Translations under genes and position numbers: made by a program | Shown here: positions 59,929 to 64,000 of the stretch, in pieces | Position numbering within the stretch: the first letter of the stretch is position 1 | How the letters are laid out: every line of letters starts with the position of its first letter | The notes under the pieces: generated by a model | Told to the model about the DNA's origin: nothing | The model's input: only the letters and a program-made list of their open reading frames with translations | The model's database searches: none | DNA from: Cantharellus purpuraceus | Lineage: Eukaryota > Basidiomycota > Agaricomycetes > Cantharellales > Hydnaceae | Assembly (NCBI GenBank): GCA_025174535.1 | Contig: JALBUN010000012.1 | Location: forward strand, 434,001-498,000 | Length of the DNA: 64,000 nt | Direction: 5' to 3'

Positions 59929-61361
59929 CTGTTAAGCCAGGTGCATGTATATTTTCGGGCGGACTGGTGGGATGAGGGATTTGTCAGGGGCGAGGCCAGT
60001 TCGACCTGTATTCACTCCATAGTATGAGATCTACCATATTCATCACGCATCCCCCGCAGTGTTTGAACCACTCGGATCTAATTGTGTCCCAAAAGAGTCC
60101 TCTGGCGCTATCCGACGACGTCTGGCACAGTCTAACGACATCGAGCACAGGCCTTGACCCCCGAATGCGTACAACTTGACGCTCCAGATTGATTCTACCA
60201 CGGCGCCTAGATGTGTCGACCTTCCTGCTTGCGGATAATGATCCCTTGCGCCGTCGATTGCGAAGAAACAAAGTCGAAGTTATTGTGATCTGATAGTGGT
60301 ACTACATGCGCCCATTACTCATGAAATCACTGTCTTAATGCGAGTATTGCCTTACAAACCATTGCCATTGTGAATTCTTATGCCTGCATATAATGTCTTC
60401 TACCCCCGACTCACATCTTCTTTCATTCTGACCTACACTGCGAAGGGCTGGCTGACGGGAAGTGGTTGGGGCGAAACCAGTTTTAATGACAGGCTGTGCA
60501 TAACTCCTTTTGTCTGAGGACGTTACCAATCCTAGTGCAGGAAAAGGTGTGTAATTACAATCTCGATAGGCTTCTATAACTACCGTTGTGACATTCTCGA
60601 TCATGTAACATCAACGTCTACCCCCTAGGTGAGCGCTATAACCGTGTAATGCATCTGTTTCCTTTCGTTGGGTCTCATTTTACTGTAGAATATGAGACGT
60701 ACTCTTCCAACCGTGATATGGAATCTTCCGAAGAAGTTGATCACAGTGATATTCATGTTTCTTGTATGGCAGGGGCAAGGGGGATTTTGACTGGTTGTTA
60801 GTATTGGGACCCGACTTGTTCATATTTCATGGTGTACTTGTGCCCACCTATAGCCTGACTTGATGTGGGACACAGGGAGTGCACTGCGCCCAAATGTGCT
60901 GTGGGTCAGAGTCTCCTGGGAAGGGATCAAGGTGTTCATTACTATGGCCAAATTACAGCCAGGAATGCTATTCGGAGCACTTGATCTGCAAACGCGCTCT
61001 ACGGTGCTTAGGTGTGGATGGAAGGGGTCAGTCTGTAAGAAGCCGGTCGGAGAAGGAGGCACAGTACTATCTCCGACGAAACACTAAGACAAAGGTTGGA
61101 CCCTCGTATGTCATATAAGTAGATAGGGCAGATACATGTACGGTAGAGAATACTTGTGGACCTCAATACGAGTTGGTGGTTGGCTGGCCCGCTGGTTCCA
61201 AGTCTATTCGAAGTCCGAACTCGTACAGTCACGTGCTGAGAGGCGCCCGTAATACGTGCGGCCACGTCAGCACCAGGTAACTGCCACGACATCCTTCTCG
61301 CCTCTCAAGTGCATACAATTGTCATTCTTTTCCTTCCCTCCCAGCTCTTACCTGTACCATC
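59929..61361. other. Intergenic region, about 1.4 kb, upstream of the HAC1-like gene
   Basis: No gene recognised on either strand. The right end is the bZIP promoter and contains the UPRE-like site at 61262-61269 and a CACGTG core at about 61231-61236. Confidence 0.5.
61262..61269 (-). promoter_or_regulatory. UPRE-like element TGACGTGG in the HAC1-like promoter
   Basis: CCACGTCA on the + strand (TGACGTGG on the minus strand) 92 bp before the start codon. TGACGTG(G/A) is the core bound by XBP1-class factors in animals. Its place in the promoter of an XBP1/HAC1-type gene suggests positive autoregulation, as known for HAC1/XBP1. An 8-mer alone is weak evidence. Confidence 0.5.
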
Positions 61362-62588
61362 ATGAGGCACACCTCTGCACCTTCTCCCTCTTTTGTCGAC
61401 CCTTCTTCTTTATCTCTGCCATCTCCGCCCTCTGAGGCATCCACCCCGCCTCAGTCGAGTGTTATTGACCCGTCCTTGGCATCATCAGGCTCAACGTCTC
61501 ATAGCACCTTTCCTTCCCGCAAGCGGGCACGGACTGATGCCACTCCCGAGGAGAAACGTGAGGCCCGGGCTCATCGCAATCGCATCGCCGCGCAGAATTC
61601 ACGCGATAAACGAAAGGCGCAATTCTGTCAACTTGAAGAAAAGGTTCGCGCTCTTCAGCAAGAGAACGATCAACTTCGTGCGCAATTACAACAGGAACGG
61701 TTACGTCGAGATGGTGCCGAGAAGGATAGAGAAAATGCAGAACTAAAAGAGAGGTGTACCTCCTCTCACTTCTCCAATCGCACCAAACTCATGTCAATTC
61801 AGGGTGAAATCTCTCGAAGAAGGCTGGGGGGCTGTTTTGAAGGCATTACAAAGTCAAGGCTTCCCATCGTCAACTATTACCAACACATCAAAGAAGGAAG
61901 ACACGTCCTCACCTTCTACATCTCCCGTAATTGATCCCACGCTTCAACCATCTCCATCTACGACATTTCCTGTGTTCATCAATCCTTCTCCAGTCCTACT
62001 TCCTTTGTCATCTCCCTCATCAACTGCACCCACCGTCCCTCCTCAGTCGACATATCAACTAAATGACGAACCCACTCGCCACCTAGCACGGGTGGCGACC
62101 GCCGCTCCTGCAGCGGCGTCCCTGCAGCGGGTGGGTTCGTCCAGCGGTCTCCGATATCCTTCGACATCGACCTTGGATTGTTGTCTTCCACAGTCGCCGC
62201 GCCGTCGGCGCAGGACTTCTCTAAGACTTCGACGGATGAAGATGGACGCATTGAGGACTGGTGCCATGAAGTCTTGGCATCGAGCGACAGTCATACCATC
62301 AACGACTCCATCGCCGGTACAGCGTCGCCGGCTTCTGGCATATCTTCTACTGGCCTTTGTTCAGAGCCGGAAGCCGCCGCCTCCATTGTGAATCTTTCTA
62401 GCTTCCCCCCAGGGTCCATGGGGGCAGATGGGGACGACATGGAATTGGAGCGGCTTCTGAATTCGTTACCTGACCCTGGGGACGATTTCCAGAGCCTGCT
62501 AGCATCCGTGATGGATGACGGGAAAGTGTCTGAAGCCGTGGAAGGCTGGAATTGGGAGCTTACCCAACCATCGGCGGCTGTAGTGTGA
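61362..62588 (+). CDS. HAC1: bZIP transcription factor of the HAC1/XBP1 unfolded-protein-response type, with predicted Ire1-type intron
   Basis: Exon 1 61362-61753, conventional intron, exon 2 from 61803. The bZIP has basic region HRNRIAAQNSRDKRK, the NRxAAQxSRxRK form of HAC1/XBP1, then a heptad zipper (LEEKVRALQQENDQL). Read straight through, the second exon ends at 62391 (326 aa) with an Arg-rich tail. In the +2 frame a long acidic, hydrophobic ORF ends at 62588 (DEDGRIEDWCHEVL, DDMELERLLNSLPDPGDDF), a typical activation domain. Joining them requires removal of 2 mod 3 nt at 62065-62141; cutting CTG|CAG at both CTGCAGCGG copies removes 62111-62124 (14 nt) and gives 387 aa. A conventional GT-AG intron here (62131-62193, 63 nt) keeps the wrong frame. 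Nuclear regulator of ER stress genes, inferred. Confidence 0.8.
62065..62141 (+). other. Predicted structured Ire1-type splice region in the HAC1-like mRNA
   Basis: A perfect 11-bp stem (62065-62075 with 62131-62141) encloses a perfect 8-bp hairpin with a 7-nt loop (62076-62083 with 62091-62098) and a 7-bp hairpin (62100-62106 with 62112-62118). Two direct copies of CTGCAGCGG lie at 62108-62116 and 62122-62130. CTGCAGC fits the CNG|CNGN loop cut by Ire1. A further CCGCCGC at 62099-62105 also fits; cutting there with the second CTG would remove 23 nt, also 2 mod 3. The cleavage pair is inferred. Confidence 0.65.
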
Positions 62589-63427
62589 TTCCTCGATGGT
62601 GTTCGATTCCGTTTCTCGTTCCTTGGCTTTTCTTTTTTTTCCGGATATCTATCTATGTTCCATTTCATATCTCCCCTAACACTTAACGCTTTTGGACCAC
62701 ACCCTTGCCCAATATCTTGCACATTTATTCCACCACCTTACTCATCCATTCCTTTCCCTTTTGAATGACTCTGCGACTATCACTCTGCATCTCGCCGCCC
62801 GTTCCCCCAATGCGTTCCTGCCGAGCTTGTCTCCTGTATCTGCATCGATGCGCGCATGCTCTCCCTACGGGTTGTAGGGCTGCTTGTCTTGGTGTAGATC
62901 GGTGAGCGCTTGGCTAGGTTGCTCTCTCAAATTGACAGTGCACTTGTGTACGGTCCTTTTTTTTCCCTTGGCGTGTTGTACGTGTGGTTGTGGTTTCAGC
63001 AGACGGGCTTTGCGTATGTTTGGCGGCTAGATGGTGGACGGGGTTGTACATGATAGACAACTAGGGGGTGAATGGAAAATTCCGAGCGTCGAGATCAATC
63101 GAGTGTGATGAGCTCGGTTTGAAACTTAACGCGTCCTGAGTATACCAAAAGAGGCCGAAAGGAGAATTATGTCCATACATAGACTGAATATAGGAAGCCA
63201 GCGATGACCAAATCTCTGTGCTGTCGAAGTGATGTGCTAGTTAATGTGTGCCGTATCCAATGAGTAGGTTGCAATTAATGAGAGTATAACAGAATAACAG
63301 CTACTAGTTAGAGCATACGTTTGGTTTCGTGAGGAATAATTCCTCTGGCCGCTCCATGCTGTTCTCTTATATAACTTATGTACCACACGAGACTACTTAA
63401 TGCTACATACTTGAAGCTTCTCGGTGT
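62589..63427. other. 3' region of the HAC1-like gene and intergenic sequence
   Basis: 839 bp between convergent genes. Pyrimidine-rich tracts follow the bZIP stop (62620-62770). A long 3' UTR is possible. No gene recognised. Confidence 0.5.
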
Positions 63428-64000
63428 TCAAGCGAACACGTCAGTGGCCATTCTGTTACTCTGAATGCGTTCAAAGCCAGCTCGGACTTGTTCATCGGTC
63501 CACGATGGCTGCGCGTTTTTGATTAACTTGAGGATTGATTCTTTGATGCCATTGGCGACACCAGGAGAGCCACAAGTAAAGAACTATTGAGAAGTAACTG
63601 GTAAAAAAGGCACAACAATACGGAAATGGAATGGTAGCTAACCTTGGCACCTCCCTCGTAAGCCACTGAAATAGCATCACGGTCATTCCACACGCGACTT
63701 AGAACAGTGAACTTGTCAGCCAAGAAGGAAATCGTGCAGCAAATTATCGGATATCTTACTCTTGAACGTACTTGCAGCCACCCGACTGTTCTATCGCGCG
63801 GCTGAAGGCGGGTCTGATCTCTAAAAAGCCCAACTTCAACCATTCCTTAAAATCATCATTCGCATAGAGGTAATCTTCTTCGGGAGAGCGGCATCCAAAA
63901 AAGAGAGTGGTTTTTCCAATCTTGCGGCCAGATGAGAACTGGATGGCGCGTTCCTGGATGAATCCTCGCATTGGGGCGATACCTGATCCAGCGGCAAACA
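63428..64000 (-). CDS. C-terminus of an NADPH-P450 reductase / CYP505-type flavoprotein
   Basis: Partial, cut by the window end. Exons 63583-63428, 63697-63643 and the part of an exon from 64000 to 63760. The encoded 150 residues cover the NADP-binding end of an FNR-type reductase: AAGSGIAPMRGFIQER (GxGxxP-type loop), TLFFGCRSPEEDYLYANDD, KYVQDRVWNDRDAI, then FFTCGSP and ATDVFA at the C-terminus. The spacing FGCR..DYLY..VQ and the ending ATDVF resemble cytochrome P450 reductases and the reductase half of fused P450s (BM3/CYP505). Whether a haem domain is fused upstream cannot be seen. Confidence 0.85.

What the first reader, a model, noticed from the sequence alone, without database searches (positions are those of the whole stretch)
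61803..62588. HAC1/XBP1-type bZIP whose activation domain is out of frame: predicted Ire1 (non-spliceosomal) intron
Sequence shows a bZIP with a HAC1/XBP1 basic region, then two overlapping frames: the bZIP frame continues to a basic tail (stop 62391), and the +2 frame carries an acidic C-terminus (stop 62588). A removal of 2 mod 3 nt is needed, as in XBP1 (26 nt) and Aspergillus hacA (20 nt). The only GT-AG candidate nearby (62131-62193) is 63 nt and does not change frame. Two CTGCAGCGG copies 14 nt apart, each holding a CTG|CAGC cut site, would give exactly the needed shift. If both are used the intron is 14 nt, shorter than the HAC1-type introns I know of; a 23-nt alternative exists.
Basis: partly seen in the sequence, partly recalled or inferred. 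Interest (0 to 1): 0.88.

Follow-up and report, generated by a model that had tools for sequence, protein, structure and literature searches.

The report
Mushroom stress-switch gene with Ire1 intron
This fungal gene looks like the XBP1/HAC1 stress switch, whose messenger RNA must lose 38 letters (not 14) to make the active protein, and its first cut site departs from the known rule in the same way in many related mushrooms.

Summary
The two overlapping frames are real. The gene starts at 61362, has a GT-AG intron at 61754-61802 and codes for a bZIP that runs unspliced to 62391 with a basic tail; an acidic frame ends at 62588. Homologs place the 5' cut in a hairpin upstream of both CTGCAG copies (CCACC-UAG|CACG-GGUGG, 62079-62095) and the 3' cut at the second CTG|CAGC: 38 nt (62087-62124), junction RHLA|AGG. 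Of 240 listed homologs, 14 read this junction directly. Among 96 contig ORFs, all 4 with an acidic tail have it and the other 92 keep the hairpin peptide. Against it, 53 acidic gene models, including the nearest relative's, keep that peptide and join elsewhere. The genome holds IRE1 and a Trl1-type ligase. The 3' loop fits CNG|CNGN; the 5' loop (YNG|CNCG) does not: residue 5 is Arg in 188 of 188 intact motifs, which rules out G at +3. The claim that only one GT-AG candidate exists is wrong: 28 would join the frames. Splicing in this species was not observed.

The parts
61261..61269 (-). TGACGTGGC, resembles a UPR element (UPRE core recalled from general knowledge), 93 nt upstream of the ATG
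   Evidence: 1 match in the window, 0.54 expected; the 8-base core has 4 matches, 2.05 expected: weak
61362..61753 (+). exon 1: start codon, basic region, first part of the leucine zipper
61754..61802 (+). conventional 49-nt GT-AG intron
   Evidence: joins the two bZIP frames; homologs read ELKERVKSLE across it
61803..62086 (+). exon 2 up to the proposed 5' Ire1 cut, kept in both forms
62065..62075 (+). 5' arm of the 11-bp exon-exon stem
   Evidence: perfect inverted repeat with 62131-62141, pair probabilities 0.93-1.00
62076..62098 (+). 5' hairpin: 8 bp and a 7-nt loop UAG|CACG (62084-62090), encodes RHLARVA; proposed cut after 62086
62087..62124 (+). proposed 38-nt Ire1 intron
   Evidence: homologs joined as RHLA|AGG: 14 of 240, all 4 of 4 acidic contig ORFs
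   Evidence: not conserved
62122..62128 (+). 3' site CUG|CAGC, fits CNG|CNGN; proposed cut after 62124
62131..62141 (+). 3' arm of the 11-bp exon-exon stem
62125..62588 (+). acidic C-terminal region in the spliced frame, with stop
62125..62391 (+). basic tail of the unspliced frame, overlapping the acidic frame, with stop

Best explanation
This is the HAC1/XBP1-type unfolded-protein-response switch of an agaricomycete fungus (nearest listed relatives Ramaria and Gautieria, so probably Gomphales). The mRNA, after ordinary removal of a 49-nt intron, codes for a bZIP with a basic tail. Under ER stress Ire1 cuts it at UAG|CACG (after 62086), in an 8-bp hairpin with a 7-nt loop, and at CUG|CAGC (after 62124). 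A Trl1-type tRNA ligase joins the ends, which an 11-bp exon-exon stem holds together. The 38-nt loss moves translation into the acidic frame and gives a 379-aa protein. Shown here: both frames, the predicted hairpins, conservation of the peptide that encodes the 5' hairpin, homologs in both forms with the predicted junction, and IRE1 and ligase genes in the genome. Inferred: cleavage by Ire1, induction by stress, ligation by Trl1, and the activator role of the acidic tail.
For: Of 240 listed homologs 202 keep the hairpin peptide, 14 read the predicted junction, 24 show neither. Among the 96 homologs from jgi, lgn or ena contigs alone, the 4 acidic-tailed ORFs all have the junction and 91 basic and 1 neutral keep the hairpin peptide; all 92 could form the seven stem pairs. 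RQLARLA in 3 sequences is a double change that keeps a pair which RQLARVA or RHLARLA would break, and neither of these occurs. Variable codons at the 3' site are L, Q or R, as CNG allows. The region folds better than 200 of 200 shuffles. The four equivalent placements of the 38-nt cut have no GT-AG or GC-AG ends. IRE1 RNase domain (matches IRE1 chains in the PDB) and RNA-ligase and CPD domains side by side.
Against: No RNA data from this species. The nearest relative's model, P0001 of Ramaria rubella, keeps RHLARVA...LQR and enters the acidic frame further on. Among 96 acidic gene models outside the contig set, only 10 have the junction, 53 keep the hairpin peptide and 33 show neither; 13 models read ..APPGG..APPAGG or ..ESAGG, another join at the same 3' site. 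28 GT-AG pairs in the window could join the frames. The 3' stem has a pair probability of only 0.04 and the full three-hairpin form lies about 4 kcal/mol above the minimum. The 5' loop is off the known consensus, and a Candida glabrata HAC1 that lacks consensus sites is reported unspliced (passage of PMC6116095). That the four junction contigs are cDNA is inferred.
Confidence: 0.87

Rival explanations
1. A conventional spliceosomal intron joins the frames, for example 62135-62193 (59 nt, GTTCGT...TTCCACAG) or 62131-62213 (83 nt, GTGGGT...GCAG).
For: 28 GT-AG pairs of 40-150 nt join the frames. The model of Ramaria rubella and 52 others keep the hairpin peptide and still end in an acidic tail.
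Against: None of the 4 acidic contig ORFs is joined that way. The models disagree among themselves on the join, as expected of predictions. The structure and the RHLARVA conservation would be unexplained.
Confidence: 0.06
2. Ire1 removes 14 nt (62111-62124) or 23 nt (62102-62124).
For: Two CTGCAGCGG copies and a correct frame shift; P-A-A, which goes with the upstream copy, also occurs in Ramaria, Hysterangium, P0005 and P0045.
Against: P-A-A in only 6 of 155 homologs; no homolog of 240 keeps the hairpin peptide and then reads AAGG; the upstream copy lies in a 6-bp hairpin whose 7-nt loop is UCCUGCA, with the cut out of register.
Confidence: 0.03
3. No excision: the acidic frame is reached by ribosomal frameshifting at the hairpin, or the overlap is a chance open frame.
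For: A very stable structure lies at the frame change.
Against: The acidic frame is conserved as protein, with the motifs I/M-E-D-L/W-F-R-E and RLL..LP (alignment), and 4 contig ORFs pass from RHLA to AG(G/A) in one frame.
Confidence: 0.02

Closest known systems
Cryptococcus neoformans HXL1 and Ustilago maydis cib1 (basidiomycete HAC1/XBP1 counterparts)
   Same: bZIP, basidiomycete, unconventional intron removed in an Ire1-dependent way, 56 nt and 65 nt, both 2 mod 3 (passages of PMC3154848, and PMC8071499).
   Different: Intron here 38 nt; the HXL1 paper names CAG at both borders, whereas the 5' border here is G|CAC. Their sequences were not compared here.
Filamentous-ascomycete hacA/HAC1 and metazoan XBP1
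   Same: Short intron between two hairpins, frame change to another C-terminus, 20-26 nt in filamentous ascomycetes (passage of PMC8071499) and 26 nt in XBP1 (abstract in a search listing).
   Different: Longer intron; 5' loop YNG|CNCG in place of CNG|CNGN; no Rfam match, RF04247 being described for Metazoa (passage of PMC11701678).
Agaricomycete records named X-box-binding protein 1 or hypothetical protein
   Same: Homologs; 10 gene models already carry the exact junction.
   Different: Other acidic models (86 of 96) are joined elsewhere or lack the motif. In Pycnoporus cinnabarinus no clear ortholog was found (passage of PMC4101180); P0135, listed as Trametes cinnabarina (taken as the same species, recalled), is a homolog.

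Membership tests
HAC1/XBP1-type switch | bZIP of this kind at the N-terminal side | tested here: met
   Pfam bZIP_1 and bZIP_2; homologs named X-box-binding protein 1 by UniRef
HAC1/XBP1-type switch | second C-terminus out of frame, joined by removal of a segment that is not GT-AG | tested here: met
   by homologs only: 14 of 240 with the junction, 4 of 4 acidic contig ORFs; ends not GT-AG; not seen in RNA of this species
HAC1/XBP1-type switch | 3' cut site CNG|CNGN in a 7-nt loop | tested here: met
   CUG|CAGC; a 5-bp stem is possible, but its inner pairs have probability 0.04
HAC1/XBP1-type switch | 5' cut site CNG|CNGN in a 7-nt loop | tested here: not met
   UAG|CACG: 7-nt loop and G|C met, -3 and +3 not; Arg at motif residue 5 in 188 of 188, so +3 is C or A
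HAC1/XBP1-type switch | Ire1 and tRNA ligase present | tested here: met
   PF06479, PF08302, PF09511
HAC1/XBP1-type switch | cleavage by Ire1, induced by ER stress | not testable with these tools
   needs RNA or enzyme
Yeast-type HAC1 translational block | intron pairs with the 5' leader | tested here: not met
   duplex energy equalled or beaten by 29 of 200 shuffles
Rfam RF04247 (metazoan Hac1/Xbp1 intron) | covariance-model match | tested here: not met
   0 Rfam matches at E <= 1 in 61200-62800

The most novel reading that the evidence does not exclude
Agaricomycetes as a class use an Ire1 substrate with two unlike loops: a consensus 3' loop CNG|CNGN and a 5' loop YNG|CNCG in which the G that would pair with -3 has moved from +3 to +4. 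Their Ire1 must then read the 5' site by another rule than the one measured for yeast Ire1, while still pairing two cuts for ligation.
Probability: 0.65. Interest if true: 0.6.

Novelty: new variant of a known kind. Interest (0 to 1): 0.5.

Why it matters
It proposes exact cut sites for the main ER-stress switch of mushrooms, fungi that secrete large amounts of enzyme, and gives a simple peptide signature (RHLARVA then L/Q-Q-R-V unspliced; RHLA-AGG spliced) for finding both forms in sequence data. Many listed gene models of this factor appear to be misjoined (86 of 96 acidic models lack the junction). The conserved departure of the 5' loop from CNG|CNGN makes agaricomycete Ire1 a natural test of how Ire1 recognises RNA.

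Tried and rejected
Rejected: 14-nt and 23-nt introns. An Rfam search gave nothing. Feasibility of seven stem pairs is weak evidence alone: 32 of 56 single-residue neighbours of RHLARVA would keep them. The 14 of 202 peptides that cannot form all seven are all gene models, none a contig ORF; one of them, P0107, is a false match in the coiled coil. Pairing of the intron with the 5' leader is not better than chance. A hydrophobic segment in the unspliced tail is not a general feature (19 of 133 tails at p < 0.05). No structure was predicted, since it would not bear on the cut sites.

Full report
What is there. The gene starts at ATG 61362. A 49-nt GT-AG intron (61754-61802) splits the leucine zipper. 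Exon 2 continues the bZIP frame to a stop at 62391: 326 aa, with a last part of 89 aa of net charge +17. A second frame, open from 62067 to 62588, gives an acidic tail of charge -21. Above its cut-offs Pfam finds only the bZIP.

Who carries it. The 38-nt-spliced product finds 285 proteins at E <= 0.001 among the 7994 candidates scored; 120 are listed. The best is Ramaria rubella, 62% identity over the whole query, then Gautieria, Clathrus and Hysterangium. The window is therefore probably from Gomphales or near it (inference). Two more searches bring the distinct listed homologs to 240; the unlisted ones were not examined.

Where the cuts are. In the unspliced frame two peptides stand out: RHLARVA, in the window encoded by the hairpin CGCCACC-UAGCACG-GGUGGCG, and L/Q-Q-R-V, encoded by CTG|CAGCGGGTG. 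In one search, 202 of 240 homologs keep the first (at least 4 of 7 residues, Ala at 4 and R, K, Q, H or G at 5), 14 read straight from R/C-H/Q-L/S/P-A into AG(G/A), and 24 show neither. The direct reading is what removal of 62087-62124 gives in the window (RHLA|AGGFVQRS). Because bases repeat at the two ends, four placements of the 38-nt cut give the same product; that Ire1 cuts at G|C, and the 3' consensus, select 62086|62087 and 62124|62125 (inference). In 102 of the first 183 homologs both motifs can be read; there the implied intron is 35-53 nt, most often 47 (38 of 102), and 38 in 10 of 102 (the formula makes every length 2 mod 3).

Control without gene models. Annotated models may hold invented introns, so I set apart the 96 homologs whose source is jgi, lgn or ena alone. 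There the 4 acidic-tailed ORFs (P0042, P0082, P0117, P0152) all have the junction, and 91 basic and 1 neutral ORF keep the hairpin peptide. I do not know how those sources call genes; P0045, which runs through the conventional intron in a wrong frame, suggests no intron modelling for at least that one. Of the 144 others, 96 have acidic tails: 10 with the junction, 53 with the hairpin peptide and 33 with neither. Thirteen of the models keep the hairpin peptide and read ..APPGG..APPAGG or ..ESAGG, a different join at the same 3' site; I take these for predicted short GT-AG introns, but their DNA was not seen and a real second join is not excluded. The nearest relative's model (P0001) is also joined elsewhere. 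That the four contigs (1.2-1.6 kb) are cDNA is an inference.

RNA constraint seen through proteins. All 92 unspliced contig ORFs keep a peptide whose codons can form all seven stem pairs. That alone is weak, since 32 of 56 single-residue neighbours would too. Stronger is RQLARLA in three sequences (P0105, P0120, P0207, probably one clade and one event): either change alone would break a pair, and neither single change occurs among 240. P0152, related to P0105 by sequence, reads RQLAAGG. At the 3' site the variable codon is L (81) or Q (21), and R in three more, all possible as CNG.

Structure in the window. The region 62060-62150 folds at -48.8 kcal/mol against -34.4 (sd 3.5) for shuffles, z -4.1, 0 of 200 as low. 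An 11-bp stem joins the exon flanks with pair probabilities of 0.93-1.00; the 5' hairpin has 0.37-0.69; the two inner pairs of the 3' stem have 0.04. The form with all three hairpins lies about 4 kcal/mol above the minimum. How the 3' loop is presented is the weakest point of the structural argument.

Machinery. The genome holds an IRE1 RNase domain whose pieces match IRE1 chains in the PDB; luminal, membrane and kinase parts upstream were recognised by eye in the open frames. RNA-ligase and CPD domains as in Trl1 lie side by side; the kinase domain of Trl1 was not sought.

How unusual. Yeast Ire1 prefers CNG|(C/A)NGN in a 7-nt loop (passages of PMC8104961), and CNG|CNGN is given as the consensus (passage of PMC8071499). 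The 3' site fits. The 5' site does not: residue 5 of the motif is Arg in 188 of 188 intact motifs, so +3 is C or A, never G; and residue 3 is Leu in 176 of 188, which makes -3 a U. Loop size and G|C are kept. A pair of -3 with G+4 would make it a shifted form of the consensus (inference). Fission-yeast Ire1 accepts varied loops around G|C, so cleavage is plausible; a Candida glabrata HAC1 without consensus sites, however, is reported unspliced (passage of PMC6116095). By protein features and layout the gene works like HAC1/XBP1; because the 5' consensus was tested and not met, I call it a variant, not a plain member.

What is in print. Searches showed no listed paper that maps this intron in a mushroom; only best hits are listed and subscription journals are mostly missing. 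PMC3154848 (passages) names Coprinopsis and Laccaria homologs of HXL1 and calls for study of them; PMC4101180 (passages) found no clear ortholog in Pycnoporus. Hooks and Griffiths-Jones 2011, which may cover basidiomycetes, is not held, so priority cannot be claimed.

Noticed in passing
62332-62364, unspliced frame: Hydrophobic stretch LLAYLLLAFVQ near the end of the unspliced tail, kept almost unchanged in Gautieria (P0002), Hysterangium (P0004), P0005 and P0045, and a similar one in some Boletales (P0239, P0111, P0073). It recalls the HR2 segment of unspliced XBP1 that brings its mRNA to the ER (passages of PMC9217131). Not general: 19 of 133 tails at p < 0.05.
   Followed up: partly
61261-61269: TGACGTGGC on the minus strand 93 nt upstream of the ATG, like a UPR element; possible self-regulation, weak statistics.
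   Followed up: partly
P0032, P0040, P0043, P0046, P0049, P0062, P0121, P0122, P0131-P0134, P0139: Thirteen gene models keep the hairpin peptide and rejoin just before GG of the 3' site; by inferred codons this would be a GT...CTGCAG removal of about 23-29 nt, too short for an ordinary intron. Prediction artefact or a second real join.
   Followed up: no
63428-64000: Minus-strand open frames resembling the end of a cytochrome P450 or flavin reductase (FAAGSGIAPMRGFIQER...), by eye only.
   Followed up: no
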